Assembly: GCF_041381155.1 (NCBI RefSeq)
Contig: NC_091143.1
Span: 22,843,695-22,907,694 of the forward strand
Reading direction: 5' to 3'
DNA length: 64,000 nucleotides
Origin: Argopecten irradians
Taxonomy: Eukaryota > Mollusca > Bivalvia > Pectinida > Pectinidae
A program made the position numbers and the translations under genes. The notes below the pieces were generated by a model. That model ran no database searches, had not been told where the DNA came from, and saw nothing but the letters and a program-made list of their open reading frames with translations. This document shows, piece after piece, positions 20,651 through 62,556 of this stretch; the stretch's first letter is position 1; every line of letters begins with the position of its first letter.

Positions 20651-23600
20651 CTAGGGATTACAATAATAATCAAATTAGTCTCATTAATGAAAAATTCCTA
20701 TAAATATATCAAATTTATGGAATATGAACTTTTATATACATATTCAAATATCTAGTACAGTTCATTACTTTTAAATTTACATACTCTATACTTTTAAATT
20801 TACATACTCTATATATTAATTATATAGTGAAACTTTGAATTAACAAATGACGCGAGTGTTAATTTTATCTAAAATAAAGCTACATATAGGTATACTAAGA
20901 AGCCTTTCTTTAATATATGTAACCAAAGATGGATGTCTAACTGTAAATACATATAATATCTTATATCATAAGAAAAACGAGGGGTTTGAGCAAATAAAAC
21001 TATTATCATTACTTTGAAATGATGTAGATATGGTTCTATCCGTCTGTGAACCCAATACTTATCCTATTATCGTCAGCCTGTAACTGGTCTAGATAACTCA
21101 ATACTTACCCTATTATCGTCAGCCTGTAACTGGTCTAGATAACTCAATACTTACCCTATTATCGTCAGCCTGTAACTGGTCTATATAACTCAATACTTAC
21201 CCTATTATCGTCAGCCTTAACTTGTCTAGATAACTCATACTTACCCTATTATCGTCAGCCTGTAACTGGTCTAGATAACTCAATACTTACCCTATTATCG
21301 TCAGCCTGTAACTGGTCTAGATAACTCAATAACTACTTACCCTATTATCGTCAGCCTGTAACTGGTCTAGATAACTCAATACTTACCCTATTATCGTCAG
21401 CCTGTAACTGGTCTAGATAACTCAATACTTACCCTATTATCGTCAGCCTGTAACTGGTCTAGATAACTCAATACTTTACCCTATTATCGTATGTATCGTC
21501 ACGTCAGCCTGTAACTGGTCTAGATAACTCAATACTTACCCTATTATCGTCAGCCTGTAACTGGTCTAGATAACTCAATACTTACCCTATTATCGTCAGC
21601 CTGTAACTGGTCTAGATAACTCAATACTTACCCTATTATCGTCAGCCTGTAACTGGTCTAGATAACTCAATACTTACCCTATTATCGTCAGCCTGTAACT
21701 GGTCTAGATAATCTAATACCCGTGTTCTCTTCAACTGTCCCGCTTTCTCTCTGAATGACGTCACAGTGTGGTGACATTGACCCGTGACACATGCAGTGCT
21801 GTTGGGGTCACACTTCTGATACTGTGGATGATAAAACGGTAACATTAACGACTATTGTACACATGTTTGACATATTAACGACCACTTTACACGTGTCTGA
21901 CATATTAACGACCATTGTACACGTGTTGGACATATTAACGATCATTGTACATGTGTTCGACATAATAACGACCATTGTGCACGTGTTTGACCATTGTTCA
22001 TGTACACGTGTTTGACATATTAATGACCATTTTACACGTGTTTGACATATTAACGGCCATTGTACACGTGTTCGACATATTAACGACCATTATACACGTG
22101 TTTGATATATTAACGACCAATGTACACGTGTTTGACATATTATCGACCACATTACACGTGTTTGACATACTAACGACCATTGTGCACGTGTTTGACCATT
22201 GTTCATGTACACGTGTTTGATATATTGACGACCATTGTACACGTGTTTGACATATTAACGACCATTGTACACGTGTTTGACATATTAACGACCATTATAC
22301 ACGTGTTTGACATATTAACGACCATTGTACACGTGTTTGACATATTATCGACCATTGTACACGTGTTTGACATATTAACGACCATTGTACACTTGTTTGA
22401 CATATTCACGACCAATGTACACACGTTTGACATATTCACGACCATTGTACACGTGTTTGACATATTAACGACCATTGTACACGTGTTTGACATATAACAC
22501 CATTTACACGTGTTTGACATATTACGACCATTGTACACGTGTTTGACATATTAACGACCATTGTACACGTGTTTGACATATTAACGACCATTGTACACGT
22601 GTTTGACATATTAACGACCATTGTACACGTGTTTGACATATTAACGACCATTTACACGTGTTTGACATATTAACGACCATTGTACACGTGTTTGACATAT
22701 TAACGACCATTATACACGTGTTTGACATATTAACGACCATTGTACACGTGTTTGACATATTAACGACCATTGTACACGTGTTTGACATATTAACGACCAT
22801 TGTACACGTGTTTGACATATTAACGACCATTGTACACGTGTTTGACATATTAACAACCATTATACACGTGTTTGACATATTCAACGACCATTGTACACGT
22901 GTTTGACATATTAACGACCATTGTACACGTGTTTGACATATTAACAACCATTATACACGTGTTTGACATATCAACGACCATTATACACGTGTTTGACATA
23001 TTAACGACCATTGTACACGTGTTTGACATATTAACGACCATTATACACGTGTTTGACATATCAACGACCATTGTACACGTGTTTGACATATTAACGACCA
23101 TTGTACACGCGTTTGACATATTAACAACCATTATACACGTGTTTGACATATCAACGACCATTGTACACGTGTTTGACATATTAACGACCATTGTACACGT
23201 GTTTGACATATTAACGACCATTGTACACGCGTTTGACATATTAACAACCATTATACACGTGTTTGACATATTCAACGACCATTGTACACGTGTTTGACAT
23301 ATTAACGACCATTGTACACGCGTTTGACATATTAACAACCATTTACACGTGTTTGACATATCAACGACCATTATACACGTGTTTGACATATCAACGACCA
23401 TTGTACACGTGTTTGACATATTAACGACCATTGTACACGCGTTTGACATATTAACAACCATTATACACGTGTTTTGACATACGTGTTTGAATATCAACGA
23501 CCATTGTACACGTGTTTGACATATTAACGACCATTGTACACGCGTTTGACATATTAACAACCATTATACACGTGTTTGACATATCAACGACCATTGTACA

Positions 23601-26600
23601 CGTGTTTGACATATTAACGACCATTGTACACGTGTTTGACATATTAACGACCATTGTACACGTGTTTGACATATTAACGACCATTGTACACGTGTTTGAC
23701 ATATTAACGACCATTGTACACGTGTTTGACATATTAACGACATGTACACGCGTTTGACATATTAACGACCTTTTCACGTTTGACATATTAACGACCATTG
23801 TACACGTGTTTGACATATTAACGACCATTGTACACGTGTTTGACATATTAACAACCATTATACACGTGTTTGACATACGACCATTGTACACGTGTTTGAC
23901 ATATTAACGACCATTGTACACGTGTTTGACATATTAACGACCATTGTACACGCGTTTGACATATTAACGACCATTTTTCACGTGATTGACATATTAACGA
24001 CCATTGTACACGTGTTTGACATATTAACGACCATTATACACGTGTTTGACATATTAACAACCATTATACACGTGTTTGACATATCAACGACCATTGTACA
24101 CGTGTTTGACATATTAACGACCATTGTACACGCGTTTGACATATTAACGCCCATTTTTCACGTGATTGACATATTAACGACCATTGTACACGTGTTTGAC
24201 ATATTAACGACCATTATACAGTGTGTTTGACATATTAACAACCATTATACACGTGTTTGACATATCAACGACCATTGTACACGTGTTTGACATATTAACG
24301 ACCATTGTACACGCGTTTGACATATTAACGACCATTTTTCACGTGATTGACATATTAACGACCACTGTGCACGTGTTTGACCATTGTTCATGTACACGCG
24401 TTTGACATATTAACGACCATTGTACACGTGTTTGACATATTAACGACCATTGTACACGCGTTTGACATATTAACGACCATTTTTTCACGTGTTTGACATA
24501 TTAACGACCATTGTACACGCGTTTGACATATTAACGACCATTGTGCACGTGTTTGACCATTGTTCATGTACACGCGTTTGACATATTAACGACCATTGTA
24601 CACGTGTTTGACATATAAACGACCATTGTACACGCGTTTGACATATTAACGACCATTTTTCACGTGATTGACATATTAACGACCATTGTACACGCGTTTG
24701 ACATATTAACGACCATTGTACACGTGTTTGACATATTAACGACCATTGTACACGCGTTTGACATATTAACGACCATTTTTCACGTGATTGACATATTAAC
24801 GACCATTGTACACGTGTTTGACATATTAACGACCATTATACACGTGTTTGACATATTAACAACCATTATACACGTGTTTGACATATCAACGACCATTGTA
24901 CACGTGTTTGACATATTAACGACCATTGTACACGTGTTTGACATATTAACGACCATTGTTCACGTGTTTGACATATTAACGACCATTGTACACGTGTTTG
25001 ACATATTAATGACCATTGTACACGTGTTTTATACTTATTATGATATTATGCATTATATCACAATTCTAATCGTTATCTCTTATGCACATAAAAACATATT
25101 TAGATTTGTCACATATGGTGAAGTACATGTAACTACATTTTGTGTATTTGGTTTTTATTTGCATAGATATGATAAAATATAACGAACGTGTTTTTTCATA
25201 AAATATGGTATTAAAATGCTAAAGAAATAGCATTACACAATCACATTGATATTTGCGCAGGAAACTGTTCTTAAACGTTGTCACATAAAGACAATAAAAC
25301 TCACAATAAATGTTCCGATTTGTGAATGTGTGTTTACCTGTTTGAATATGTCTGGACTAAGTCCGTCTTGTATCAGCTGTATAGCAGCCCTTTCCTTGTC
25401 CAACTCGATACAGGAAAACAGTAGTGAACTGTGGCGAGTTATGTCCCCATGGACCCGTAGACCCCGGATGAGGCACTGTATCCTCATCAGATCCTCATTC
25501 TGTAATAAACACGAAACAGTAAACAACATAATAGCAACAAAATAGCTAAGGATAAAAGTATCTAAACAATGTAGATGGCGTTGGTAGCTTGATAATGCTT
25601 AACGTCCTTTTCACAGATCACATTGAAGGACAGTCTATCCTGTATGCAATGTGGTACGTGTGGTGATGGCGCATATGTTTTGGGAGGCTACGGTATGTTC
25701 TTGAAGTGTCTTCTCAAAAGTAGGCGGAGACTCCCAAAAACGAAGACTGGTAGAGGAGTCTACTGGTACACTAAAAAGAAGTGATAACTGCTTCATAGAT
25801 ATTACCTTAGCATGACATACGTCAAATTGGGGTCTTGTGTCAAATTCTTATAATAATTTTATGGAAACAACTCAAAAAGGCAATTTAAAATTATCTGCTG
25901 GAAAATTTGGTCTCAAAAATAAAAGATAATAATATATTCTTTTAAACACTGAGTACTGAGTGAGCTTAAATAGTCATTTTTATGTGTTGTAGAATTAGCA
26001 TTAAGACCAGAATTCTTATTATACTATTGCAGCTTTTTGTTGGCAATTACTTTTGGCATTTTGTCAGATCAACAATTATGGAAGCAACATTTAGCAGTCA
26101 TGTAACTCTATTATCCAGTGTAGCTCTCGACATTTGCTTTAAAGGTCAATGACTTGTATAGACAAACTTTGGATCCTTTCAATAATGAGACCAATTAACA
26201 GATACTTTATTTAGAAGTCAAAGTGATTTGAAGAGAGGGATGACGATAATTCCTTTATCGGTTAATTTTCATCAACTGATCTCATGGTTATCATGGAACG
26301 GCTAATATAAAACGCAGTTACCTGATGAGAATGAGAGTTATCTCTCTTAGATAGACTTTCTGTATTTATTGGATAGCGTCTTTTACCTGTATCGCTGTCG
26401 TCATGGCCTCACTGAACTCTGTCTGACTGAGGAACACCTCCATCGCCATCTCCTGAACTTCCTTTTTCTGGATGGTAAAGGTTCGCTTCCCACACACCTC
26501 CACATTATAATCGTGTGGCGTCAATCCTTGCTGTAAGTTGATCATGGTTACGAAGTTGTTTAATATTTTGATAATTCGTCCACTTTTGTTTTCATTTCAA

Positions 26601-29600: not shown

Positions 29601-32600
29601 CGATAGGGCTTTGATATCTTTGTCGAGTGATGAAGTAAGACAACTATGAAATATAAGGCCAGGCCCCGATTTCTCGAAACAAACCTTAGTCAAAAACTGA
29701 CTTAAGTCATAAATTTTCATATAAGCTACATAAGGAGAAAAAAAACTTAAGTTTTGACTTAAGTCTACTATTTGTTTCGAGAAATCGGGGCTAGGTGTTA
29801 CAATACCTGGAAGAATAAAGGTTTACATGGTTCGACATCTGGGTTGTATGAAAACACTACTGATGTGTCAACTCCCATCTCAAGTAGAGATCTAATGTTT
29901 TCGTCCATATCACCCTCCAACATGGCCGCCAGAATCGGAAGTGGAAATTCTGGGTAATCCGGATACCGGTACTGGTAACTGTGGTCAGTAACGTTAACAT
30001 CGATACTGCCCATGGCATTTGGAACTGAAACAAAATTGGATCACTATTAACGATCAAATAATAATTTCTTTGTTTTAAAACCCCAGTAATTAATATAAGA
30101 TTTAAAACATCCCAGTTTTTCTATAGTTACATAAGTATTTTTTCAAATTATTGTAATGACAATGCAAGTTATGATATTTTTCACAATCACAATTTGTTAA
30201 GGATTTCCCCTTTAAATTAATACATTCGGCGTTATAATATTTTTGTTAAATAAATGATTACGTGAAAAACGACTGCTGAAATGAAGCATTTGCTCAAGTG
30301 AAGGGCGAGGAGCATCACGATTAAAACATTTAAAGGCCTCATCAGCTTTTAACAGCATGAACTATTCCAATATTTGACCGTTACCACATGGAGATATTGT
30401 AATACCTTCTTTAAGAAAGGATTGGAGGGCAAGTTCCTTGCCCGTTAACAAGGCCAAAGCAAACTCATTAGTATTTTCATATTTTTCAAACAATTCCACA
30501 AGGTAGTGATCCTGAATCTGTTTGGCGATTGTTTTTAGACAAATGAGTTTTCCATTTTTCACAACACTTGCTCGACAGAGATATGTTAGAAGCTTCTTCA
30601 CAATGTTCCTGTCAGGTCTCGCCTCCGTCATGGCCCGGTATAAACCTGTAATATCAAGATGGCAATAACAAGTGAATGACGTAAGAATACGCTAAATAAG
30701 ATCGGCGAGTTGTTTACTGTCAGCGGGTCATTATTTCGTGGTTTCCTTTATAGGGCATATTCGCTATTATTCTTACTAAGTTACATTAATTTATTTCTGA
30801 AACTGGTGGTTATACTTCGCGGGTTTCAGTAAAACTATAGCTAAAATAAGCCTCCTAGCCAAATTTGGCCGCTTTACGGTACATTGTATTATCATTTTCG
30901 TTAAACTAACAATTTGATCATGAGGAGGGAATATTAGCGCAGAATATACTGGAGTGGTAATGTGCTCCAACAGGTAAGTTTGTTGATATGACGAATCAAT
31001 GAAGTAAGCAGTGATTATTTCACCCTGGTATTGAGTTTTGTGTCATTGATTGTATATTTGAAATAAATATTAATATCCTCTTTAGTGTTGTATTCACATC
31101 TTTTTTAATGGTAGATATAAAGTGTACCTGGAGAGAATTTATCGAACCAATGAAGCGTTTCCCGCCATCCGTCAGGTTTGGTCTGTAGAAGAACCTCCCG
31201 GGGTGTCATACCTTCTCTGTTCTTAATCAATGGATCGGCGCCGCATCTGTCACATGACAAAAACTAGTAACTTATGATTATGAACCAAATATCTTTAGTT
31301 TCGTTTAAGGAGAATATAAACAGAGCACGTAACAAATTTACAGGTGATGGAGAACTATGTGTTATATGTGTACCAAAGAACTTAGTATAATACGTTTACT
31401 ATAATTGGATTATTGAGAGTTATAACAAATGAATTAGTATAATCGGATCTACTTGTACATTGAAAGGTCAAGAAGGTAACACCGAAAATAAACTAACCAG
31501 AGGATAATCTTTCAACCTGATCAGAAAAGGGCCACTTATAGTGCTCTTTACAAATATTATACAACACACAAAATTTACAGTTCTATAAACAGTAATGTGT
31601 TCAGAGCCTGCAAGGTTCTCCTGGCGGAGGAATACAGCAGTACCCACTACCAAGAAAACAAGTAACGATCTAAGGTCAGCATGAAAGAAAACGTAGGTAT
31701 CGAGCATCCCCCATAGTTTTACTATGAGATAGTCCAGAGGTGTAGAGATCGTAAGTGATCGGAACCCCTGGAGTATCGAGGATGAGCATCCCCATACTTT
31801 CTTCTTTTCGACACAAACGAATCGCATCATACCGTACCATACCGCGCAATATCTTCTATTTCGTCAAATGGATATTGTGTCACTGAACTGGTCGAGGAAA
31901 TATGCCATCATTACCTCCTATCCTGTAAATGTAGGGTTATTTATTGTTTCTACCCTAAATATATAGGGTTATTTATTGTGTCTAAATTGTTATTTATTGT
32001 GTCTATCCTAAATATAAAGGGTTATTTATTGTATTTAACCTAAATATAGAGGGTTATTTATTGTTTCTACCCTAAATATAGAGGATTATTTATTGTTTCT
32101 ACCCTAAATATATAGGGTTATCTATTTTTTCTATCCGAAATATATAGGGTTATTTATTGTTTATTCCCTAAAAATATAGAGGGTTATTATTGTTCCTACC
32201 CTAAATATAGAGGGTTATTATTGTTCCTACCCTAAATATATGGGGTTATATACATGTTTTGTTTATACCTTAAATATATGGGGTTATGTATTGTTTCTGC
32301 CCTTAATATATAGGGTTATTTATTGTTTCATTTATATTACGAACCTAATCACTGCCACCACAGCCCGATATGAATGAGGTTTGCACATGATCCTGTGGAG
32401 GAATGCGTTCCCTTCATTGTCCAGAATGTCCAGTTCTATACCCTTGCTGGCCATGATGTAGATGACGGAGACGCCATGAGGGGACCGAAAGTGTTCTATA
32501 TAGTCGGCCAAGAGGTGTAGATATGTCTCCCCCGTGTCTTCATCACGTAAGTTGACATTCTTACCACTTTGTACGTGTCTGATGCATTCTGACGTGATCT

Positions 32601-32667
32601 GTGACAGACATTCATCCGCCAGAATCTTGTATATCCTGGTATCACGGAGTCGCACCATACCGAATGC
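20585..32667 (-). CDS. Ankyrin-repeat protein, 11-exon gene model
   Basis: Eleven minus-strand exons join with matching phases (2,1,1,0,0,0,0,0,0,0) into about 717 residues from the ATG at 32658. Exons run 32345-32667, 31128-31246, 30385-30645, 29807-30024, 28778-29206, 28306-28503, 26908-27006, 26387-26530, 25338-25499, 21678-21821 and 20585-20650. Ankyrin signatures recur: GETYLHLLADY (about 45-55), CGADPLIKNREGMTPREVLL (106-125), SEGQTIVYEAI and KHGRTARDYAE (exon 5), CGRTVLHIAIF (exon 6), SGRTPLHYAQLF (514-525). Residues 649-717 are a non-ankyrin tail with a Cys/His cluster. No signal peptide or membrane segment is seen, so I infer an intracellular protein that binds other proteins; its partner is unknown. 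The first exon may be internal, since its frame stays open to an AG at 32668, so further 5' exons are possible. Ankyrin family is certain; the exact role is not. Confidence 0.85.
20767..20812. repeat. 23-bp tandem duplication
   Basis: A 23-bp word, ACTTTTAAATTTACATACTC and TAT, occurs twice head to tail in the last intron of the ankyrin gene. Confidence 0.8.
21036..21714. repeat. 46-bp minisatellite derived from an exon/intron junction
   Basis: About 14 copies of a 46-bp unit. On the minus strand each contains ATCTAGACCAGTTACAGG, CTGACGATAATAGG and GTAAGTATTGAG. The copy nearest 21714 is the genuine end of exon 10 plus its splice donor; the others lie in the following intron. Most copies keep GTAAGT intact, while the leftmost reads ATAAGT. 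Copies are nearly identical, with small insertions near 21330 and 21490, so the expansion is recent. Confidence 0.9.
21678..21821 (-). CDS. Ankyrin gene exon 10, non-ankyrin C-terminal region
   Basis: A 48-codon exon, phase 0 at both ends, between ATCATCCACAG and GG-GTAAGT. It carries CDPNSTACVTGQCHH, a C-x6-C-x4-C-H-H cluster (652-666), then a charged likely helical stretch (SFREKAGQLKRTRVLDYLDQ). I do not recognise the domain. The exon lies between two tandem arrays, and its 3' end is the source of the 46-bp array. Confidence 0.75.
21840..25030. repeat. 30-bp minisatellite array, about 105 copies, with higher-order periods
   Basis: The unit is GACCATTGTACACGTG followed by TTTGACATATTAAC. 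Thirty is a multiple of 3, so both strands stay open and translate as decapeptide repeats (VFDILTTIVH, or SNTCTMVVNM on the other strand); these are not genes. Variants recur in order: CACGCG and TATACACGTG units return every 90-120 bp near 23.1-23.55 kb, and a TTTTCACGTGATTG unit returns every 180 bp near 23.97-24.33 kb. The array fills most of the intron between ankyrin exons 9 and 10. Confidence 0.95.
25338..25499 (-). CDS. Ankyrin gene exon 9
   Basis: 54 codons, phase 0 at both ends, between TTATTACAG and CAG-GTAAAC. It begins NEDLMRIQCLIRGL and ends GLSPDIFKQ, a degenerate ankyrin-type helix pair (DKERAAIQLIQDGLSPD). Confidence 0.85.
26387..26530 (-). CDS. Ankyrin gene exon 8
   Basis: 48 codons between ACTTACAG and CAG-GTAAAA, phase 0 at both ends. 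It starts QGLTPHDYNVEVCGKRTF, the end of an ankyrin repeat, then turns into a charged helical linker (EVQEMAMEVFLSQTEFSEAM). Confidence 0.85.
26908..27006 (-). CDS. Ankyrin gene exon 7
   Basis: 33 codons between TTTAACAG and GTG-GTAAGT, phase 0 at both ends. It contains the canonical ankyrin word SGRTPLHYAQLF. It was found from its splice sites, being too short to stand out as an open frame. Confidence 0.85.
27093..27603. repeat. 254-bp tandem duplication in an ankyrin intron
   Basis: The segment starting GATGTCAAAAGTCTCAGTT at 27093 is repeated from 27347, with scattered substitutions and small indels. No coding content is seen. It lies in the intron between exons 6 and 7. Confidence 0.85.
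28306..28503 (-). CDS. Ankyrin gene exon 6
   Basis: 66 codons between AATTACAG and AAT-GTACGT, phase 0 at both ends. It encodes EHIRKMFRITEAGNLGELRH and later DRCGRTVLHIAIFNKKGN, a clear ankyrin repeat that continues into exon 7. Confidence 0.9.
28778..29206 (-). CDS. Ankyrin gene exon 5 (largest)
   Basis: 143 codons between TGTTTTAG and AAG-GTCAGA, phase 0 at both ends. It holds at least two ankyrin repeats (NSEGQTIVYEAIARDF; YGANIASRDKHGRTARDYAE) and a degenerate third (EGVEELLRHGYDHLLDVRDK). Confidence 0.9.
29662..29792 (+). mobile_element. Small MITE, copy 1, with CCCCGATTTCTCG ends
   Basis: GCCCCGATTTCTCGAAAC at the left is inverted at the right as GTTTCGAGAAATCGGGGC. Inner words CTTAGTCAAAA and TTTTGACTTAAG also pair, so the 131 bp can fold on itself. 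A diverged copy lies at 39447-39574. It sits in the ankyrin intron beside exon 4. Confidence 0.75.
29807..30024 (-). CDS. Ankyrin gene exon 4
   Basis: 218 nt between TTGTTTCAG and CCAG-GTATTG, entering in phase 1 and leaving in phase 0. It encodes PNAMGSIDVNVTDHSYQYRY, then PLPILAAMLEGDMDENIRSL and LEMGVDTSV, an ankyrin-like helix pair and loop. Confidence 0.85.
30385..30645 (-). CDS. Ankyrin gene exon 3
   Basis: 261 nt, phase 1 at both ends, from ATATTACAG to TGTG-GTAACG. It encodes LYRAMTEARPDRNIVKKLLT onward to LQSFLKEGITISPC. Another donor in the same phase (AAAGAAG-GTATTA) lies 27 nt earlier; I prefer the later one because it keeps the ankyrin-like FLKEGITISPC end. Confidence 0.8.
31128..31246 (-). 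CDS. Ankyrin gene exon 2
   Basis: 119 nt between CATGTGACAG and CCAG-GTACAC, entering in phase 2 and leaving in phase 1. It encodes CGADPLIKNREGMTPREVLL and then QTKPDGWRETLHWFDKFSP. Joined to exon 1 it gives IRCGADP, a canonical ankyrin junction. Confidence 0.9.
31918..32329. repeat. 32-34-bp minisatellite with inner palindrome
   Basis: About 12 imperfect copies of CTACCCTAAATATATAGGG followed by TTATTTATTGTTT. Most units contain the near palindrome CCCTAAATATATAGGG. The array ends about 14 nt inside intron 1 of the ankyrin gene, beside the exon 1 donor. Confidence 0.85.
32345..32667 (-). CDS. Ankyrin gene exon 1 (first found)
   Basis: From the ATG at 32658 (MVRLRDTRIYKILADE) to ATTAG-GTTCGT, leaving in phase 2. 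GTTCGT is a weak donor, but only this site matches exon 2 in phase. The frame stays open upstream through AFG to an AG at 32668, so the exon may be internal. It contains DTGETYLHLLADY and DNEGNAFLHRIM, two ankyrin-like words. Confidence 0.8.
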
Positions 32668-38570: not shown

Positions 38571-38576
38571 ATCACT

Positions 38577-38585
38577 TATATATAA
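38577..38585 (+). promoter_or_regulatory. TATA box of the LPMO gene
   Basis: TATATATAA lies about 170 bp upstream of the start codon at 38756. It would place transcription start near 38610, after which the ATG at 38756 is the first ATG. Motif, spacing and first-ATG rule agree. Confidence 0.6.
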
Positions 38586-50900: not shown

Positions 50901-53111
50901 TTTACATCGCTTAGTTTCATAAAAGTGATACGAGAGTGGAAACTATTGGACGTAGGTTTGTGGCATTTGATGATGGTTATTAGAGCTGATGTAACTTGTG
51001 GTTTTTGGCTGTACTGGGAGCTTTGTTACTTTCCCCAAGGCATATGTGTTGTTGCATTATGTACTAAGTAATCTACGACGTTGAAAAGAGGTTTGCAGTG
51101 TTGATAAGAAGTTTGAAGGGCTTCTAAGAGTTGGTGATGTACATGTGTGATGCTGCAAGAACAATTGAAACGTTGATGGAAATTAGAGTTTGCCTAGATA
51201 TTTCTGATGTTGCTCACGTCTTATTACTAATACATTATTATAAGATGTGTTGTATTGCTTAGATGTCGGTGACTTTGCATAGAGCTTTATAATTCTGTCA
51301 TTTGTATGCCATTGTTAGGAGGGTTGTAACGTTGGTAACAGGTCTGCGGCGTTACTTTGTAAACACTGCTAACATATATGGTCGATAAAGGTTTAAAGCG
51401 TTACTTAGAATGGGGTCGTTTCTAGAAAGCGATGCAATGTAAACACATTGGTATGACGATCTGCATGTTCGACCACATGTAAGAAGAGTCTTTGGCTCAA
51501 TGTGCAATCGAATAAAAATAAAGTCAATTATTATTATAATTTTAAATTTATATATATTCAATTACATTTTCCCCAGAACATGATGCGCCAAGGAGGACGA
51601 TGTGGGCCGTGCGGCGATCCATGGCAGGGGCCTCGCGATAACGAGGCTGGCGGGAAGTACTCTACTGGTGTGATCACGAGACAGTACGCTTCCGGTCAGA
51701 CCATCAACATCACAGTCCAACTGACCAGTAACCATAAAGGCTATTTCGAGTTTCGATTATGTCCAAACAACAATGGTCAGATGCGGGTGACACAAGCATG
51801 CTTCGACCAGTACCTTCTGAGGATTGTTGGGCTGGGCACCAAGTACCATATAGATGCTCCCGACTCTAATGTCTTCATCGATCTGCTGCTGGAACTACCC
51901 CCGGGCGTCAGTTGTTCTAACTGTGTCCTCCAGTGGAAATGGCGTGCAGGTAAATAGTTACTAGATTAACATGCTTCCATTGATCGACTCCCTCAGATAA
52001 TGGCAATTCAAGCTAAGACATATGGTATACGCTCATATTGGTTCGGTCAAAAAGATACCGAAAATGATTGACTCTGTAAAAGATATGTTATGATGACTAA
52101 GGAGAGTTTATTTAGGAGCTTATTTGGATTAAGCATCGGTTGGCGTCAGTTTAACAAAATTAATTGAATAACCCTTGATAAAACTTACTGATAATGTCTA
52201 TTTCATTATCTTTTGTAGCTCAAAATCGTGGTCCTGATGGAAAGGGAGGAGAATGTTTTGGATGTGGACCTCAGGAACATTTCATCAACTGTGCAGATGT
52301 ATCTATAAGTCCTTACAGTTCATCCCCTCTTCCGCTTACCCGGTCCCCTGGTGGCGGGGCTGTGGTCAGGTTCAAGGCCATTAAACCAGAAGCGTCCAGC
52401 GCTGTGTCATACGAGATCAAGTCATCCAGCAAGAACTCGGCCGCTCTTTACAGTGCCCCCTCGCGACCGGCAGAACCAGTTCAAGCCCCAGCACCAGTGC
52501 CAACCCAGAACATGTTCACACAAATATCTCACGAAATCTTCCCTGCAGGATTCGGAATGTATGGTAACAGTATGCAAAATAGTATGCAAAACATGTTCAG
52601 AAATATGTTTGATGGCGACATGGGCTACATGAATATGGCAATGAAATCCATCCGCTCCCAGCCTGCACCACCAACTACCCCTAAACCCCGACCCCAGATA
52701 CGCTACTCTCAGCCTCAGTCCAACTCTGTGAAGCTACCTACAGACCCCCGGGCACTCACCGCAACCATACTATCTTATGCCAACAGCATTCCGGACGGAA
52801 ACGACAATGCCAACTTTGAGACCTGCCAAGATGGCTACACCAAACCCACGTGTTCGGCACTCCCATCCTGGGACAAACTTCCGCAAATAGGAAAATGGTG
52901 TCAGTCCATGTGTCCGTCAGGTCTCTGTCCAGCAGCCGTGTGTGGCTGCACGTGCCCCGTCAATATTCTTCACCAAATGAGCCGTAACTTCCGAGGGATG
53001 ACCAGTCAATGTAGGGGAATCCCTGGCTGGACTGACGCCGCCATGGACGCGTGGTGTGCGTCAAACTGTAACTCGGAGTTCTGTGCGTCTGAAATGTGCA
53101 CGTGTGAGTAA
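38756..53111 (+). CDS. Secreted AA15-type lytic polysaccharide monooxygenase (three exons)
   Basis: Three exons (38756-38923, 51577-51949, 52219-53111) join in phases 0 and 1 into 477 residues. Residues 1-21 are a signal peptide; cleavage before His22 (HGRLIEPPMRSSAWRYGF) exposes the N-terminal histidine that, with His109 (SNHKGYFEFRLCP), should form the copper histidine brace. NCGGFP, CGPCGDPW and CGPQEHFINCADV are AA15 landmarks, and the domain ends near 211. AA15 enzymes oxidatively cleave chitin and/or cellulose; the substrate cannot be read here. A low-complexity linker rich in Pro, Gln, Met and Ser (about 212-377) leads to two cysteine modules (392-426 and 445-476) with the pattern W-C-x3-C-x4-C-x4-C-x-C. 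These may target the enzyme to a surface (inference). Intron 1 is 12,653 bp; intron 2 is 269 bp. The family call is firm. Confidence 0.93.
39447..39574 (+). mobile_element. Small MITE, copy 2 (diverged)
   Basis: CCGGTGTCCCGAAACAAA at the left and TTTGTTTCGAAAAACCGGGG at the right are imperfect inverted repeats matching the element at 29662-29792. Inner CCTAAGTCAAAACTT also corresponds. The copy is older, judged by mismatches between its ends. Confidence 0.65.
40145..40400. repeat. 12-bp minisatellite (ATACTTGTATAA type)
   Basis: Tandem ATACTTGTATAA/ATACTTGTATGA words with TACAAATACTTG variants. The open frames on both strands (Tyr/Lys- or Cys/Asn/Thr-rich) follow from the 12-bp period. It lies in LPMO intron 1. 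Confidence 0.85.
42340..42395. other. Short hairpin in LPMO intron 1
   Basis: GATATCACCTTCTGACTGA and TCAGTCAGAAGGGGATATC pair around a loop of about 9 nt, giving a stem of roughly 19 bp with one mismatch. It could be a small RNA hairpin or a tiny inverted-repeat remnant. Nothing decides between these. Confidence 0.5.
48665..48749. repeat. 17-bp tandem repeat (TTTTGATGGCGGGCTAT)
   Basis: About five copies of TTTTGATGGCGGGCTAT with GGTGGGGTAT and GTCGTGAT variants, in LPMO intron 1. Confidence 0.8.
51577..51949 (+). CDS. LPMO exon 2: catalytic core
   Basis: 373 nt from TTTTCCCCAG to GTGCAG-GTAAAT, phase 0 in and phase 1 out. It encodes QGGRCGPCGDPW, the second copper ligand His109 in SNHKGYFEFRLCP, and SCSNCVLQWKWRA, with the paired cysteines expected in the AA15 fold. 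Confidence 0.92.
52219..53111 (+). CDS. LPMO exon 3: core end, linker and two Cys modules
   Basis: Opens after CTTTTGTAG in phase 1 and ends at TAA. It begins AQNRGPDGKGGECFGCG and CGPQEHFINCADV (end of the AA15 domain). Phe202 sits where an aromatic residue packs near copper in the family. A long linker follows, with a Met/Asn-rich stretch (MYGNSMQNSMQNMFRNMF), then the two cysteine modules. The protein ends in CTCE. Confidence 0.92.
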
Positions 53112-54346: not shown

Positions 54347-54347
54347 T

Positions 54348-54737
54348 ATTCGGAAATGAAAGCGATGTCTTGTACTTGTACGCTATATGTTGCGATTAAT
54401 ACCGATTTTGAGAGAACAATCAGATTGTGTTATATCTCCACAACATTAAAACTATATTCAAATTAATCGTATAATTCAATTAACTAAAGATAATCTCATC
54501 AATATTCGAAATTCATTTTGGGGCTCTTTTTCTATGAAATCGCTACACCGGCATCTCAGCCAATCAGAAGCGACGTTAAAAACAGTGACGCCATTTTTTC
54601 ATTTATGGGTTGATAAAAAAACATTTTTATCAAATGAAAATGCTTGTAAAACAACAAGCAAAATTGAATTATTCGGAATTGAAAACGATGTCTTGTACTT
54701 GACGTTATGTTGCGATAGATACTGATTTTGAGATATT
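54348..54737 (-). mobile_element. Hairpin-ended element copy C, between direct repeats
   Basis: About 54420-54668 is an inverted, truncated copy of the hairpin family (CAGATTGTGTTATATCTCC, CAGCCAATCAGAAGCGACG, GACGCCATTTTTTC). It is flanked by imperfect direct repeats of about 65 bp at 54348-54415 and 54669-54735, each with GATGTCTTGTACTTG and CGATTTTGAGA or CTGATTTTGAGA. Confidence 0.65.
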
Positions 54738-54913
54738 TACGTTGTTGATGGTATATACAATGTAAATAACAATCGTGTGAGATTTTATAATTCTGGTAAA
54801 ATACTGTTTATTATAAGTCAAGCGAAATTGATGATTTTCCATCGTCTAATGAAATCGACATTTTCAAAACTTATAACATGATATTAAGGGCATTTGATTT
54901 GGGTACGAAATGT

Positions 54914-55277
54914 TTAAAGATGCTCCACCGCCGACAGAGCATGAATGATATTTATTATTTGAACAATAATTGGTGTTTAATCGTGTATAAATGTGCCTAA
55001 TTAACACAAAAAATAACATAAAATAATTTATTCCGCCTTTGGTGCATGCGCAATCATTACTTCATTCCATATAGGATATAGTGCTACGGAATTTTTTCGG
55101 GATGCAATTAATTATTTTTCATATTTATAACTTGAAGTAAAATTAGAAGCTCAAACTTTTCAATGGTAGTAATGGTGTAAAGTAAGTAACTTTTGTAACT
55201 GAAGAAAAATACTAAATCGTCTGCTACCGTTTTTGATAGTAAAAAAATGTCATTTGTCAGCGGTGGAGCATCTTTAA
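54914..55277 (-). mobile_element. MITE copy 3 with TTAAAGATGCTCCACCGC ends
   Basis: A 364-bp copy of the family at 7910-8272, inverted, with near-perfect ends (TTAAAGATGCTCCACCGC and GCGGTGGAGCATCTTTAA) and TTAA at both boundaries. Confidence 0.85.
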
Positions 55278-56190
55278 GAATTACAAATAATAACCGAAGT
55301 CTTGTATTTCTACTAGGTTGGTAAAACATCACATTGATCTCAACAAAGGTTACCATTGACCCATATCTTATGTGGAGTCAGAATAAACCTTGCCTGGCTG
55401 GAACAACGCATACAAACATACGTGTACATACGGGTTAAGTATGATATTGGCGCTTTAAATCAATTCTCTATAATGAGGTACTGTATCTGCTGTATTGTGT
55501 AATACAAGGAACTGATTGTTTCGTTGTTTTACACCGTCTTGACATTCGATACAAAGGCATTTCATTACTATTTTCGGTAAAATCTTATATTATTATAGAA
55601 ATATGAGTGTCAGAAAGCCAAATACAAAACATTGGCCTAAACTGACAACCACAGACAACTTAATATTGTCAATAGTAGATCACAAATGTTTTACATTCAT
55701 GTTAATTTCTCTTGCAATGAACAGGTCTCTATTTGTATAAATAAACACATTTTAAACCAGTCTCAACAGAGCCGTTTAGCATTCTGTTTTAAGAATGTCA
55801 CAGACGCACGGATGTTTTTGTTCTGTCATTTACTGTCTTTGCCATGAAAACCAGAGTAGATCTAGTTACACGTACAGTAAGTTTATATCCGGTCCACACA
55901 CACTTATAAAACTCGCATTAACGTCACGTCACAACGTCGTTAGGGCTTCACGATCCAAGTGCAGTACATGTGTATTACAGTACTGTACATACCTGTGTCT
56001 TTCTGAAACTGTGTAGCTGAAATCCACACCACTAATATTTCCCGTTTCCTTTATGATCGCGTTACGCCGTGTTATCATGTAATTAGAGACGACGTTCAAA
56101 ACGGTGACGTTATTAAAATGAAAACACATTTAATCAAGTCGATCACACGAACAAATTAAATGAAGAGGCTAAAAGGGATCGTTCACCTGA
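55278..56190. other. Intergenic stretch, no gene seen
   Basis: No supported exon or repeat between the MITE and the Amt 3' end. Confidence 0.4.
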
Positions 56191-56196
56191 TTTATT
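56191..56196 (-). promoter_or_regulatory. Possible poly(A) signal of the Amt gene
   Basis: AATAAA on the minus strand about 580 nt past the Amt stop. If used, the diverged repeat at 56220-56605 would lie in the 3' UTR. Confidence 0.35.
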
Positions 56197-56219
56197 TTTA
56201 TCACAATACTCTTACAGAT

Positions 56220-56605
56220 GTAATCTGTTCCACCACGTAGCACTGAGATGCTACCAGTCAAATAGGAGTGATATCCATGCTCATTTTCAGAGACAAATTC
56301 GCTATCATGATAAACTGACCACTTTTGGCACCGCCCCTCAGGCCTCCAGGGGGTGTGAACCAACAAATTGTACAATTTGATAATTTCTACCAATGAGTGC
56401 TTACTAATGCTTAGTTTCAGAGAAGAAGACATTATCATAGAAATTGTCATAGTGACCTCTTTAAGCCCGATCCCTAAGGCCCATGGGAGTGGGGTAGGGT
56501 TAGTCCAACTAATTGTACACCTTTAAATTCCCACACCATAAGGGTGCTACCAATGCAATTGATTAAAGTACTATCCAACTTTTGTTTTCAGAGAGAAAGT
56601 CGTTT
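56220..56605. repeat. Three diverged repeat units of about 130 bp
   Basis: Words recur in the same order: GGGGGTGTGAACC or GGAGTGGGGTAGGG, then CCAAC(A/T)AATTGTAC, ATGCTACCA or GTGCTACCA, and TTTCAGAGAAGAAG or TTTCAGAGAGAAAG. Two units are clear (about 56325-56440 and 56475-56605) and a third is partial (56225-56305). This resembles a common dispersed mollusc repeat; the family name is unknown to me. Confidence 0.5.
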
Positions 56606-56778
56606 ATATGACGCTTTAGACCAGCGTAAGATGCTGAACCCCAAACACCGGACGCTACGGTATGGCATAGAGACCAAGTTGACTAAAATATCAGTAATAC
56701 GCGAACTTGTTCGTAACAAAATGAGTTGGAACAGTAAAGACTACCGCACCACATCGATGTCAAATACATTCACTTATC

Positions 56779-57447
56779 TTATAGATACGTCATAATTTTA
56801 TTTGGCAGACTTCGGTTTAAATCATTTCGATGTGGCGATGTGTAATCAGAGTTATATCCCATTTCATTCTCTATTTCCGGTTCCGGTAAAAACATTACGT
56901 TTGTAAATGTCCTATCCAGATTATTATCAAAAGATTGTGCCTCCAGATCGGTACTCGTCCTGCAGCAGACATCCCCGTTCACAGTGTAAATGTCTTGTCC
57001 TCTCGGAATATCCTCATTCTGGTTGATATCTCGTTTTAGACGTTGAAATAATTTCGGGAAATTGACCATCTTTTTGTTCCTTTTTCGTTGCCGGAGTTTG
57101 TTCGTAGTTTCGTATCTGTCGCGCCATTGGCCAACCCGAAAGCCAAGGCTGTGACGTCGGCTCCTTTGTCTATCGGAGCTTAGTTCCATTTCGATGTCCC
57201 TTTCCCCGGGGGATGGGGATGGCTCGGTATCTGGAGAGTGCAGGACTGTCTTGGTAGCCTTGCTATAGACGTATCCGCCCACAGCGTGTTCCACAATGTC
57301 AGCCCCAAGGATCTCCTCCTCCAGTGGAACGCGGATCCCGATGGTCAAGTCGATCAACTTTAACCAGAAGAAAGAGTTAACGAGGGTCCATGAGACGATG
57401 GTCAGAGCAGCGAGGGCCTGGATCCCGAGCTGGTAAAAATCGCCTCC
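56779..57447 (-). CDS. Amt last exon: final membrane segment and cytosolic tail
   Basis: Starts in phase 0 after GGTTCACAG (GGDFYQLGIQALAALTIV) and ends at TAA (56779-56781). It codes the last transmembrane helix, the regulatory C-terminal helix and a long basic tail (SSDRQRSRRHSLGFRVGQWR) with a possible RRHS phosphorylation site. Confidence 0.92.
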   Translation of the reverse strand, partial: GGDFYQLGIQALAALTIVSWTLVNSFFWLKLIDLTIGIRVPLEEEILGADIVEHAVGGYVYSKATKTVLHSPDTEPSPSPGERDIEMELSSDRQRSRRHSLGFRVGQWRDRYETTNKLRQRKRNKKMVNFPKLFQRLKRDINQNEDIPRGQDIYTVNGDVCCRTSTDLEAQSFDNNLDRTFTNVMFLPEPEIENEMGYNSDYTSPHRNDLNRSLPNKIMTYL

Positions 57448-60400
57448 CTGTGAACCACGAGGACATATATAAAAGGTATATCTAGACTGGTGCTATTTAT
57501 CATTAGTCTAAAAGTCACGACCCTTTTTAACCATCCTCGATACTCCCAGGTTTTCTTTCACTGTTTTTATTCTTGGACTATGTAATTATAATTCAATTTT
57601 GCTTGTTACAATTATTTTCATTGGCCTAAACATTTACTTTATCAGCCCATAAAGGGGAAAAATGGTGTCGCCGTTTGTGACGTTGCTTCTGATTGGCTGA
57701 GATGACGGCGTAATGATTTCGTAGACAAAAGAGTCCCAATATGAATTTTGAGTATTGAAGATATTATCTTTAGTAAATTGAATTATAAGGATTAATTTGA
57801 ATTTTTTTTATGTTATGGAGATATAACACAAAAGTCTGAGTGTACTCTCATCATAAACCGCTTCGCGGTTTATTTAGAGTACACTCAGATTTTTGTGTTA
57901 TATCTCCATAACATAAAAAATCTATTTAAGTTAATTCTTAATTAGAACTGAAGGCAGCACAGGAGAACAAAACTGATTTTCGATTCTTTTGATGTACATC
58001 AAATGACCAAATTACATGTAACTGTTCGTCCGTTGTCGCAGACAGAAACTTCATTTTTGCTATGACATAGTTCATAAGTAGATATTACGACAATAATAGT
58101 AACATTTGGAATGTAGAGGATGTTTTAACTTAAATGGAACCGGTTTACAAAAAATAGATAGAAAAGTCAGGATTATGTAAGGGTAAATACTTAATGTAAA
58201 AACGGACTAATTATCCTAATAAGACAGCGTTCGATTTAAACATTGTATAAAATGTAATAAGACATATTTAGGACCACGTGTAAGGAATCTATGACGTGAA
58301 AGTCTAAGTATGGACACATACGTGGAACAATCCATGTCGGGAGTTGTCTAGCTGCATGGCGTATGTCAGACTGTCAGTCTTCGTAACGAGCCCGGCCGAC
58401 AACAAACTCCACACACCTGAGCACGCATGCGTACCGACACATCCTGAAAACAGAAAAATACATACTATATATACATACTATAAAATACATGTACAACAAT
58501 CATTCGATATAATTGTATAGTAAGTGTTAATGTCACAAATCATGTATGAGTTATCTCCCCTCATTCGATCTTGGATCATTACATAAATAGACTTACATGA
58601 GTGGCTAGGCGATATGAAATTTATCAAACGAATTCAATAATTTGATATGCCACGAACCTTTACATAGTCACCAGTGTTAGATATTCTATTTATCACATAA
58701 TTTTTATTAATATAAATATAAGCAAAACTTTAGATTCTTTTTATAAAACTGAAACAGTAGAAATCCGGCTCGGATGTGACGTTTCCGTCTACTGAGATAA
58801 TCATGCGACGTCATCTAAATATTATGACGTAAACACTACCTGTAACCTCATAATAGTGTTGTTACACACGTGTCTTACGATATTTATTATATGGCCGCAT
58901 GACATGGCCAGACGGGTTAGTTATGTGATAAATAATTCATTTTTGCTTGTTACGAGCATTTTCATTGGCTTAAAAATTTACTTTATCAGCCCATAAAGGA
59001 AAAAATGGCGTCGCCGTTTGTGACGTTGCTTCTGATTGGCTGAGATGACGGCGTAATGATTTCATCGACAAAAAAGTCCAAAAATGAAATTTGCGTTTTG
59101 AAGGGATTATCTTTAGTAAATTGAATTATATGGATTAATTTGAATAGATTTTTTTGTGTTTTGGAGAAAAACACAAAAATCTGATATGTACTCTCATCAT
59201 AATTCAATTTTGCTTGTTACAATTATTTTCATTGGCTTAAAAATTTACTTTATCAGCCCATAAAGGAAAAAATGGCGTCGCCGTTTATAACGTTGCTTCT
59301 GATTGGCTGAGATGACGGCGTAATGATTTCATAGACAAAAGAGTCCCAAAATGAATTTTGAATATTGAAGAGATTATCTTTAGGAAATTGAATTATAAGG
59401 ATTAATTTGAATATATATTTTTATGTTATGGATATATAACACAAAAATCTGAGTGTACTCTCATCATAAACCGCAAAAATAATACACTCAGATTTTTGTA
59501 TTATATCTCCATAACAACAAAAAGAGTACACTCATTTTTTGTGTTATATCTCCATAACATAAAAAAATCTATTCAAGTTAATCCTTAAATATTTTCCCCG
59601 TTAGCTCCACATATGATATCGATATATTTCGTAACATAACCAATTTTTATGAAATCAAAACATTAGCTGAACTGAAAAAAGATAAAAGGTGAAAACTATA
59701 TCCTATGGAAGTTTCAGGGTAAATCAATATCTGCTATTTTTCAATTTATGGATCGATTTCCGTCCTGACCAAGTGGTTGTGTAATTAGAATTATAATGGA
59801 CGTGACATACCGACAGGATCGTCTATCCGGAGTTTAGTGAAGAGTTCCACGGTCAGGTTGGTAATTAATGCCCCAACAAATCCGATCAGAAGTCCTTCCC
59901 AGGGCTCCGCCACAGCGCAATTAGCTTGAACATAAACGTATCGGTTACTATGATTACGTAATATATTATATATAGTATATAATATATACAGGTTATCTTA
60001 CGGCCAGAATCCATCCATTTTACAGGATCAATCGACAGGAGACAATGTCGCCTGTCCGCATGATCATATTTTGATTACTTAGTTATCAGAAATCCACGCA
60101 ATCATTCAAAAGTTCGATTCAATGTTAGTAACATGCGATTTGTTTTACTCAGATTCAATACCCAGAAGTTATCACCAATACATGAATGCATGATATAATA
60201 ATACCATAATCAGATACATCCCAGACTATTGCAAGGACCGATAACTTTTGTAAACTGAGTGTAAGGTCCGATAACTGATAAACTGAGAGTAAAGACCGAT
60301 AACCGATAAACTGAGTGTAAGGGCCGATAACTGATAAACTGAGTGTATGGGCCGATAACTGATAAACTGAGTGTAAGGACCGATAACTGATAAATTGAGT

Positions 60401-62556
60401 GTAAGGACAGAAAACTGACAAACTGAGTGTAAGGACCGATAAGTGATAAACTGAGTGTAAGGAGCGATAACTGATAAACTGAGAGTAAAGACCGATAACT
60501 GATAAACTGAGTGTAAGGACCAATAACTGATAAACTGAGTGTATGGGCCGATAACTGATAAACTGAGTGTATGGGCCGATAAATGATAAACTGAGTGTAA
60601 TGACAGAAAACTGATAAATTGAGTGTAAGGACAGAAAAAACTGATGTAAGGACCGATAAATGATAAACTGAGTAAGGACAATAATGATAAATGAGTGTAG
60701 GACAGATAACTGATAAAATAAACGATAAATGATAAACTGTGTAAGGACAGATAACTGATAAACTGGTGTAAGACGATAAATGATAAACTGAGTGTAAGGA
60801 CAGATAAATGATAAACTGTGTGTAAGAACCGATAAGTGATAAACTGAGTGTAAGGACAGATAAATGATAAACTGAGTGTAAGGATAACTGAGTTAAGTGA
60901 TAAACTGTGTGTAAGAACCGATAAGTGATAAACTGAGTGTAAGGACAGATAAATGATAAACTGAGTGTAAAGACTGTTAAGTGATAAACTGAGTGTAAGG
61001 ACCGATAATGATAAACTGAGTGTATGGACCGATAACTGATTAAATGAGGTAAGGACCGATAACTGATGAACTGAGTGTAAGGACCAATAACTGATAAACT
61101 GAGAGTAAAGACCGATAACTGATAAAATGAGTGTAAGGACCAATAACTGATAAACTGAGTGTATGGGCCGATAACTGATAAACTGAGTGTATGGGCCGAT
61201 AAATGATAAACTGAGTGTAATGACAGAAAAGTGATAAACTGAGTGTAGTGACAGAAAACTGATAAACTGAGTGTAAGGACCGATAAGTGATAAACTGAGT
61301 GTAAGGACCGATAAGTGATAAACTGAGTGTAAGGACCGATAACTGATAAACTGAGTGTAAGGACCGATAACTGATAAACTGAGTGTAAGGACCGATAACT
61401 GATAAACTGAGTGTAAGGACAGAAAACTGATAAACTGAGTGTAAGGACCGATAAGTGATAAACTGAGTGTAAGAACCGATAACTGATAAACTGAGTGTAA
61501 GGACAGACAACTGATAAACTGAGTGTAAGGACCGATAAGTGATAAACTGAGTGTAAGGACCGATAACTGATAAACTGAGAGTAAAGACCGATAACTGATA
61601 AACTGAGTGTAAGGACCGATAACTGATAAACTGAGTGTATGGGCCGATAACTGATAAACTGAGTGTATGGGCCGATAAATGATAAACTGAGTGTAATGAC
61701 AGAAAACTGATAAACTGAGTGTAAGGACCGATAACTGATAAACTGAGTGTAAGGACCGATAAGTGATAAACTGAGTATAAGGACCGATAAGTGATAAACT
61801 GACTGTAAGGACTGATAAACGGTGTAAAAGTAAGGACAGATAAATAAATAAACTGTGTGTAAGGTCAGATAACTGATAAACTGAGTGTAAAGACCCATAA
61901 GTGATAAACTGAGTGAAAGGACAGATAAGTGATAAACTGAGTGTAAGGAGAATGATAAATGATGTAGACGATAATGATAAACTGAGTGTAAGGACCGATA
62001 ACTGATAAACTGAGTGTAAGGACCGATAACTGATAAACTGAGTGTAAGGACCGATAACTGATAAACTGAGTGTAAGGACCGATAAGTGATAAACTGAGTA
62101 TAAGGACCGATAAGTGATAAAATGACTGTAAGGATAGATAACTGATAAACTGAGTGTAAGAACCGATAAGTGATAAACTGAGTGTAAGGACCGATAACTG
62201 GTAGACGTTACTCTGTACCTGTGATCCCGACCAAAGCGCCCAGAACTCCGTTTATCAGATAGGAGATCTCAAACCGACGCTGCTTCATCAGGTAGCTGGA
62301 ATCCAGAATCACAAATCTATCAAATATCAGATTATAACGGGAAAACTCTTATTTTTTGTTTGTTTGTTTGTTTTGTAAATTAGTATCAAATTTCTTATCA
62401 AAAGATGAGTTATGAGACGTTTTGTGGCAAACAATGTCTAAAAATTTACTAAAAAATCGGTTTATTTTAGCATGTGGATGGTCACAGAATCCTCACCTCA
62501 GTGTCAGCCCTACACTCCCTCCCGCTACCGAGGCTGTGATCGTAGAAACGGCCGAC
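56779..62556 (-). CDS. Amt-family ammonium transporter, 3' part (five exons, partial)
   Basis: Five minus-strand exons (62497-62556, 62219-62295, 59811-59924, 58322-58443, 56779-57447) join with matching phases into the last 346 residues of an Amt/Mep/Rh-superfamily channel that moves ammonium across a membrane. Amt landmarks appear in order: ITASVAGGSVGLTLSYLM, INGVLGALVGITANCAV, EPWEGLLIGFVGALITNL, RIDDPVGCVGTHACSGVWSL and a last membrane segment IQALAALTIVSWTLVNSFF. The cytosolic tail opens with the Amt regulatory helix (EEEILGADIVEHAVGGYVY) and then runs about 150 residues rich in Arg, Ser and Asn. Family members have about 450-550 residues with 11 membrane segments, so roughly the first five are missing upstream. 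Introns hold a 28-bp array and hairpin elements. It looks like the plant-type Amt clade of invertebrates rather than Rh proteins. Confidence 0.9.
57591..57943 (+). mobile_element. Hairpin-ended element copy D (most complete)
   Basis: Starts ATTCAATTTTGCTTGTTAC and includes GGTGTCGCCGTTTGTGACG and CTTCTGATTGGCTGAG. It ends with a palindrome (57781-57943) whose turn is AAACCGCTTCGCGGTTT. It lies in an Amt intron, about 145 bp from the last exon. Confidence 0.8.
58322..58443 (-). CDS. Amt exon: HxxxG-containing membrane segment
   Basis: 122 nt between TTTTCAG and CAC-GTATGT, entering in phase 1 and leaving in phase 0. It encodes CVGTHACSGVWSLLSAGLVT through NSRHGLFH. The His in GTHACSG corresponds to a conserved pore-lining histidine of Amt channels. 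Confidence 0.9.
58926..59200 (+). mobile_element. Hairpin-ended element copy E (truncated)
   Basis: Starts near ATTCATTTTTGCTTGTTACG and runs through the unique half into the first hairpin arm (CACAAAAATCTGATATGTAC), stopping at TACTCTCATCATAA where copy F begins at once. The second arm is missing. Confidence 0.75.
59201..59592 (+). mobile_element. Hairpin-ended element copy F
   Basis: A near-complete copy joined head to tail to copy E. The hairpin turn differs: the second arm is partly duplicated (GAGTACACTCATTTTTTGTG near 59523) and the GCTTCGCGG turn is lost. Confidence 0.75.
59811..59924 (-). CDS. Amt exon: EPW-containing membrane segment
   Basis: 114 nt from TATGTTCAAG to GTCG-GTATGT, phase 1 at both ends. 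It encodes NCAVAEPWEGLLIGFVGALI then TNLTVELFTKLRIDDPV, a core Amt signature. The acceptor has a poor pyrimidine tract, but it is the only AG that preserves the reading frame into the neighbouring exon. Confidence 0.88.
60240..62203. repeat. 28-bp minisatellite array, about 70 copies
   Basis: The unit is GGACCGATAACTGATAAACT followed by GAGTGTAA, with ACAGATAAATG, AGTGATAAACTG and GGGCCGATA variants and a more degraded middle (about 60.63-60.9 kb). The minus strand reads as an open 28-residue repeat (three units), giving false frames up to 562 codons. It lies in an Amt intron and starts about 20 nt from a splice donor. Confidence 0.95.
62219..62295 (-). CDS. Amt exon: ING..GITA membrane segment
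   Basis: 77 nt between GATTCCAG and ACAG-GTACAG, entering in phase 2 and leaving in phase 1. It encodes YLMKQRRFEISYLINGVLGA and LVGIT, a signature part of Amt channels. Confidence 0.9.
62497..62556 (-). CDS. Amt exon: small glycine/alanine-rich membrane segment
   Basis: 60 nt between CCTTTCAG and CTGAG-GTGAGG, phase 2 at both ends. It encodes SAVSTITASVAGGSVGLTL. The join to the next exon gives LTLSYLM. This is the most 5' Amt exon seen in the window. Confidence 0.82.

What the first reader, a model, noticed from the sequence alone, without database searches (positions are those of the whole stretch)
21036..62300. Four minisatellite arrays begin within about 14-25 nt of a splice site
The 32-34-bp array ends about 14 nt past the ankyrin exon 1 donor; the 30-bp array ends about 20-25 nt before the exon 10 acceptor; the 46-bp array includes the exon 10 donor; the 28-bp array starts about 20 nt past an Amt donor. 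Units differ in sequence and length, so this is not one family spreading. Expansion may start next to exon ends, or arrays may be tolerated up to the minimal splice signal.
Basis: partly seen in the sequence, partly recalled or inferred. Interest (0 to 1): 0.72.

Follow-up and report, generated by a model that had tools for sequence, protein, structure and literature searches.

The report
Tandem repeats built on splice sites
In this invertebrate genome, short DNA repeats in introns often start right at exon edges and sometimes copy the splice site itself many times over; this was known in a few genes of the lancelet (amphioxus), and here it appears to be widespread in a different branch of animals.

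Summary
Gaps re-measured: 15 nt past the ankyrin exon 1 donor (32-bp array), 22 nt before the exon 10 acceptor (30-bp), 18 nt past an Amt donor (28-bp). The 46-bp array lies across the exon 10 donor: 14 copies of the last 34 exon bases plus the first 12 intron bases. The ankyrin model is open over 11 exons (710 aa); Pfam supports the Amt frame. In other genes of the same 846-Mb genome, arrays lie within 60 nt of, or across, 8 of 130 junctions (3.0 expected from the next 60-500 nt; p = 0.036, uncorrected for exons there). Genome-wide, tandem triples of the donor motif CAGGTAAGT number 3107 per 19,404 single sites, against 91 per 5,409 for the reversed motif (9.5-fold); for the shorter GGTAAGT the excess is 1.6- to 2.9-fold after normalising, for an acceptor motif 1.9-fold. 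Tandem duplications of exon/intron borders are known in amphioxus as "mirages". A bantam microRNA points to a protostome here, so the kind is known but lineage and scale look new. Whether borders seed duplications or merely tolerate them is open; no RNA-seq was available.

The parts
31989..32329 (-). Array A: 32-bp minisatellite, 10.5 copies, in ankyrin intron 1, 15 nt past the exon 1 donor
32345..32658 (-). Ankyrin gene exon 1 (ends AG|GTTCGT)
   Evidence: phase-consistent 11-exon frame
21844..25029 (-). Array B: 30-bp minisatellite (TRF: 53.4 copies of a 60-bp dimer), filling most of intron 9, 22 nt before the exon 10 acceptor
21678..21821 (-). Ankyrin gene exon 10; its 3' end is the first unit of array C
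21049..21719 (-). Array C: 46-bp unit, 14 copies, each = last 34 nt of exon 10 + donor + first 12 nt of intron 10; GGTAAGT exact in 12 of 14
20585..20650 (-). Ankyrin gene exon 11 with stop codon
60233..62200 (-). Array D: 28-bp minisatellite, 71.5 copies, in an Amt intron, 18 nt past the donor
62219..62295 (-). Amt exon before array D (..GALVGIT)
   Evidence: Ammonium_transp
59810..59924 (-). Amt exon after array D (NCAVAEPWEGLLIG..)

Best explanation
The arrays are minisatellites born from tandem duplication at or beside exon/intron borders, the kind called mirages in amphioxus. Proposed steps. (1) A short segment across or just inside a border is duplicated by replication slippage or template switching (inferred; at array C the two breakpoints lie in a short imperfect direct repeat, exon GTATTAGATTATCTAGAC and intron GTATTGGGTTCACAGAC). 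(2) The duplication is tolerated because the copy next to the exon keeps the genuine splice site and the extra copies become intron (inferred; no RNA data). (3) Unequal exchange expands the array (inferred from copy number and near-identity of units). (4) Borders, donors above all, are hit or kept more often than the neighbouring intron; the excess is measured, its cause is not. Arrays A, B and D are the flush class, lying 15-22 nt inside the intron; array C is the class across the border.
For: Array C units are the exon end plus donor, and the first unit is in the exon. In exons fetched by Pfam match the same layout recurs in unrelated genes: L042 58-bp x26 and L053 63-bp x6 (ABC transporters, donor), L058 66-bp x13 (acceptor), L039 124-bp x3.2 (donor) and 38-bp x2.8 (acceptor), read as the two ends of one intron; L087 39-bp x16 (donor), L080, L090, L099 (acceptor); L105 95-bp x2.3 (donor); flush class L037 17 nt, L051 17 nt, L106 6 nt, L084 35 nt. 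Counts: TRF arrays of >=2.5 copies within 60 nt or across at 8 of 130 junctions, 11 at 60-500 nt, 3.0 expected near, p 0.036; with >=2 copies 10 and 13, 3.6 expected, p 0.015; 30-mer recurrence test 7 of 130, 2.8 expected, p 0.023; >=3 copies 4 of 130, 1.3 expected, p 0.045. Genome-wide donor motif CAGGTAAGT: 3107 triples per 19,404 singles, reversed motif 91 per 5,409. GGTAAGT: 25,301 triples against 7,558, 5,573 and 12,394 for three same-composition 7-mers; divided by local lone-site counts this leaves 2.9-, 2.1- and 1.6-fold.
Against: The local test is weak: p 0.015-0.045, the far zone contains some exons where arrays are unlikely to sit (a 25% exon share, my assumption, would raise the expectation to about 4), junctions were chosen by hand after array positions had been seen, families share ancestry, and one 30-mer hit (L098) is weak. 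The 7-mer excess is only 1.6- to 2.9-fold once normalised, on small local counts (37, 32, 17, 29 lone sites). The acceptor motif TTTTACAGG shows only 764 per 14,721 against 573 per 20,539 (1.9-fold), and one array on C1 supplies many of the copies listed. Triple counts weigh arrays by copy number, and the reversed-motif control is spread over the whole genome while donors sit in genes. No peak at 10-30 nt can be claimed from 3 events.
Confidence: 0.58

Rival explanations
1. Plain tolerance in an array-rich genome. Arrays arise everywhere in introns at one rate; those across a border survive because the exon-side copy still splices, and short non-array intron leaves little room, so edges fall near junctions by chance.
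For: About 8.6% of sampled exon-rich DNA and 16% of the window is in arrays; the array-free remainders of the four introns are only 326-757 nt, so each window case alone has P 0.14-0.29; local enrichment is modest, and so are the normalised 7-mer and acceptor excesses.
Against: Does not predict a 9.5-fold excess of the full donor motif over its reversal per single site, nor 2.5-3 times higher density at junctions than further inside the same introns.
Confidence: 0.29
2. Selection favours arrays that multiply 5' splice sites, for example as extra U1 binding sites that protect growing introns from premature cleavage or keep splicing efficient.
For: Donor motif excess is much larger than acceptor motif excess; donors stay exact in 12 of 14 copies of array C.
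Against: The units of arrays A, B and D are not copies of an exon end and donor; near-identity of units is expected in young arrays without selection; use of a downstream donor in array C would meet a TGA after 11 further residues (read from the sequence).
Confidence: 0.08
3. Artefact: wrong exon borders or misassembled repeats.
For: No RNA-seq; assembly quality unknown; long arrays are hard to assemble.
Against: Eleven-exon open frame with consistent phase, Pfam continuity across the Amt junction, and the same layout in several genes with conserved domains. Misassembly would change copy number, not put exon bases into the unit.
Confidence: 0.05

Closest known systems
Amphioxus mirages (minisatellite-like tandem duplications of exon/intron boundaries in Adh3, globins, troponin C, PGBD5); PMC3087553 (section 16 read whole, and passages), PMC3902484 (one passage); the original Adh3 paper, Nucl Acids Res 2002, seen only as a reference
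   Same: Units span a splice site and part of the exon; donors or acceptors; unit lengths vary (given as 10-72 bp in Adh3, about 150-160 bp in globins)
   Different: Reported there in single genes of cephalochordates; this genome is a protostome by its bantam microRNA, the motif count points to many donor arrays (rough extrapolation some hundreds), and many arrays here lie flush with the border without including it. Normal splicing is reported there and untested here
[quoted passage not shown] seen only as a reference title)
   Same: By its title, tandem units carrying donor sites
   Different: One human locus; not compared at sequence level here
Intron gain by tandem duplication of AG/GT proto-splice sites (Rogers 1989 and later work, as cited in PMC3087553; PMC4974935 seen in the listing only)
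   Same: Tandem duplication supplies extra splice sites
   Different: There a new intron arises; L053 and L058 share one intron position and only L053 has an array at it, so that array appears to enlarge an old intron
Intronic minisatellites in other protostomes: earthworm metallothionein intron 1 (PMC12783039, passages), abalone TSSK1-like intron 3, 27-bp unit of variable copy number (PMC6905558, passages)
   Same: Minisatellites inside introns of protostome genes
   Different: The passages seen describe no copying of the exon border

Membership tests
Mirage (border-spanning minisatellite) | Tandem unit contains an exon part and an intron part across one splice site | tested here: met
   Array C; L042, L053, L058, L039, L087, L080, L090, L099, L105. 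Arrays A, B and D do not meet it: they lie 15-22 nt inside the intron
Mirage (border-spanning minisatellite) | Both donor and acceptor borders can be affected | tested here: met
   Seed junctions: donors L042, L087, L105; acceptors L080, L090, L099
Mirage (border-spanning minisatellite) | Normal mRNA splicing despite the copies | not testable with these tools
   No RNA-seq held
Mirage (border-spanning minisatellite) | Copy-number instability between alleles or tissues | not tested
   One assembly only
Mirage (border-spanning minisatellite) | Host is a cephalochordate | tested here: not met
   bantam RF00727 78.9 bits, cut-off 61; that bantam marks protostomes is recalled knowledge
Intron gain by tandem duplication | Intron is new at that position | tested here: inconclusive
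   L053 and L058 share the GSSG|SGK intron position, so that intron looks older than the array; others not compared

The most novel reading that the evidence does not exclude
In this protostome lineage minisatellites are born preferentially at exon/intron borders, donors above all: a junction-linked tandem-duplication process that has multiplied 5' splice sites at hundreds to thousands of introns and drives intron growth.
Probability: 0.35. Interest if true: 0.82.

Novelty: new variant of a known kind. Interest (0 to 1): 0.62.

Why it matters
If junctions really seed tandem arrays, then splicing or transcription is tied to where DNA duplicates, and intron growth and intron gain share a source that can be measured directly in one genome. 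It also gives natural test genes with a dozen identical donors in a row, useful for asking how the spliceosome picks one. It extends mirages from a few amphioxus genes to a protostome genome.

Tried and rejected
Rejected: one repeat family spreading (units unlike each other; unit C matched only its own array). Rejected: the genome is amphioxus (bantam present). COX1 was sought for the mitochondrial gene order; the search found none. One search scored splice sites on loci in contig orientation, so its results for minus-strand matches are wrong; redone. A first junction test (114 junctions, 6 hits, 2.5 expected) was superseded (130 junctions). One hit in both, L098, is weak (23 of 30 bases) and is kept in the counts. 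Local counts of arrays holding donor or control 7-mers were too small to tell. The acceptor motif test was close to negative. PMC4039745 (passages) ties C. elegans minisatellites to alternative splicing, another effect. Searches for border-spanning minisatellites gave capped lists; among the listed titles and abstracts I saw border-spanning cases only for amphioxus, and by title the human one. Two listed protostome papers on intronic minisatellites were opened at passages. Most subscription journals are not held, so absence from print is not shown.

Junction sample: 103 seed loci were held (L007-L061, L062-L101, L103-L110); 130 of a possible 206 junctions were used; the rest were dropped as intronless, terminal, near-duplicate paralogues (L048, L049, L055, L056) or unclear. 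Junctions were picked by hand from ORF and consensus after TRF results had been seen. The border arrays of L053, L058 and L039 lie at junctions that were not seeds and are not in the counts. On rechecking, my odds for the best explanation went from 0.60 to 0.58 because the normalised 7-mer excess is small.
Full report
What is in the window. Reading the minus strand and joining exons gives an ankyrin-repeat gene of 11 exons, 32658 to 20585, 710 aa, all phases consistent, with Pfam Ank_2 at E 4.7e-15, and part of an Amt gene whose joined exons hit Ammonium_transp at E 3.1e-35 across the junction next to array D. The gaps are 15 nt (A, past the exon 1 donor), 22 nt (B, before the exon 10 acceptor) and 18 nt (D, past an Amt donor). 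Array C covers the exon 10 donor.

Array C in detail. It has 14 units of about 46 bp; the common unit is TTATCTAGACCAGTTACAGGCTGACGATAATAGG|GTAAGTATTGAG, that is 34 exon bases and 12 intron bases. The first unit is the true exon end and is identical to the common unit. GGTAAGT is exact in 12 of 14 units. Reading on past the first donor meets a TGA after 11 further residues. The seed breakpoints lie in a short imperfect direct repeat, exon GTATTAGATTATCTAGAC and intron GTATTGGGTTCACAGAC (printout; slippage is my inference).

Chance in the window. With each array placed at random in its own intron, P of lying within 25 nt of, or across, a junction is 0.14, 0.28, 0.28 and 0.29; product 0.003. This is post hoc. 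Of 11 arrays of at least 2.5 copies in the window, 4 lie inside the two genes modelled here, and all 4 are the ones at junctions; the other 7 lie elsewhere and were not tied to exons. The window alone is suggestive only.

The rest of the genome. The window lies in an assembly of 845,758,899 bases. I fetched exons by Pfam match: kinases, ABC transporters, helicases (matches, stretches), more kinases. TRF on them showed arrays on splice sites repeatedly: L042, an ABC exon whose last 40 nt and donor start a 58-bp array of 26 copies; L053, a 63-bp array of the exon end GSSG plus GTAAG; L058, a 66-bp array holding an acceptor and about 35 exon bases; L039, what reads as one intron with a donor-side 124-bp array and an acceptor-side 38-bp array; L087 at a donor; L080, L090, L099 at acceptors; L105, 2.3 copies at a donor. 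Flush cases: L037 17 nt, L051 17 nt, L106 6 nt, L084 35 nt.

Local test. Over 130 junctions (70 donors, 60 acceptors), arrays of at least 2.5 copies lie within 60 nt or across at 8, and at 60-500 nt at 11; 3.0 near are expected from the far density, p 0.036. With at least 2 copies: 10 and 13, 3.6 expected, p 0.015. A test on the 30 bases across the junction, against pseudo-junctions 60-460 nt into the same introns: 7 of 130, 2.8 expected, p 0.023; with at least 3 copies 4 of 130, 1.3 expected, p 0.045. Weak points: junctions were picked by hand after array positions had been seen, some far sequence is exon, and gene families are related. I take this as moderate support for a 2- to 3-fold excess.

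Motif test. Three exact copies of CAGGTAAGT at 25-55 bp spacing: 3107 in the genome; the same pattern read backwards: 91. Single sites: 19,404 and 5,409. Per single site 0.160 against 0.017, 9.5-fold. For the shorter GGTAAGT 25,301 triples, against 7,558 (its reversal), 5,573 and 12,394 (a permutation and its reversal). Lone-site counts of the four 7-mers outside arrays in 288 kb of fetched DNA were 37, 32, 17 and 29; dividing by them leaves 2.9-, 2.1- and 1.6-fold, on small numbers. In the first 100 listed single sites of CAGGTAAGT (C1, 0-5.4 Mb) I count 4 arrays holding 40 sites and 60 lone sites; the first 100 triples are 4 arrays in 6.5 Mb with four different units, which extrapolates very roughly to some 500 such arrays (capped list, and all of its rows are on one strand). 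For the acceptor-like TTTTACAGG the figures are 764 per 14,721 against 573 per 20,539, 1.9-fold, and one array on C1 supplies many of the listed copies. So the clear genome-wide signal is a donor signal. Controls are spread over all DNA while donors sit in genes, so part of the 9.5-fold may be a gene effect.

Known kind. Tandem repeats spanning exon/intron borders were named mirages in amphioxus (PMC3087553, section 16 read; PMC3902484, passage). Those papers report that splicing is not disturbed, and PMC3087553 calls the mechanism unclear and proposes intron gain from such repeats. The present genome carries a bantam microRNA (78.9 bits, cut-off 61), which by recalled knowledge marks protostomes, so it is not amphioxus. 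The species is not identified; a mollusc is my guess from gene content and assembly size. Intronic minisatellites without border copies in the passages seen are reported in an earthworm and an abalone gene.

Verdict. Of 14 junction arrays counted here (10 with at least 2 copies, 4 in the window) 7 contain the splice site and 7 stop short of it. Whether borders seed duplications or merely tolerate them is not settled; a full annotation with RNA-seq would decide.

Noticed in passing
15071-18409: 35-bp array of 95 copies; G+C 54% at 16001-18000 against mostly 30-40% elsewhere; long open stretches on the minus strand (up to 1017 aa); outside the gene models made here.
   Followed up: no
L039 1-399 and 535-639: What reads as one ABC-transporter intron has arrays at both ends: a donor-spanning 124-bp unit and an acceptor-spanning 38-bp unit.
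   Followed up: partly
G000:C1:2757186-2757588 (rows): A 49-bp donor array whose unit reads like the ABCB exon end ..YEPKNGV|gtaag, near L050; apparently the same donor as in L039 with another unit length.
   Followed up: no
58932-59469, about 57650-57940 and 54430-54670: A 267-bp element, twice in tandem and again nearby, seen by eye in both orientations; looks like a dispersed element.
   Followed up: no
L031, L040, L051, L088: A 145-146 bp tandem unit with shared text recurs at several loci, so some array families do spread.
   Followed up: no
L022: A 27-bp array lies in an open frame next to a kinase domain and seems to code a repeated ASTTQLPVT peptide.
   Followed up: no
51457-51957: Open frame with an LPMO_10 domain (E 2.7e-15), a polysaccharide-degrading enzyme.
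   Followed up: no
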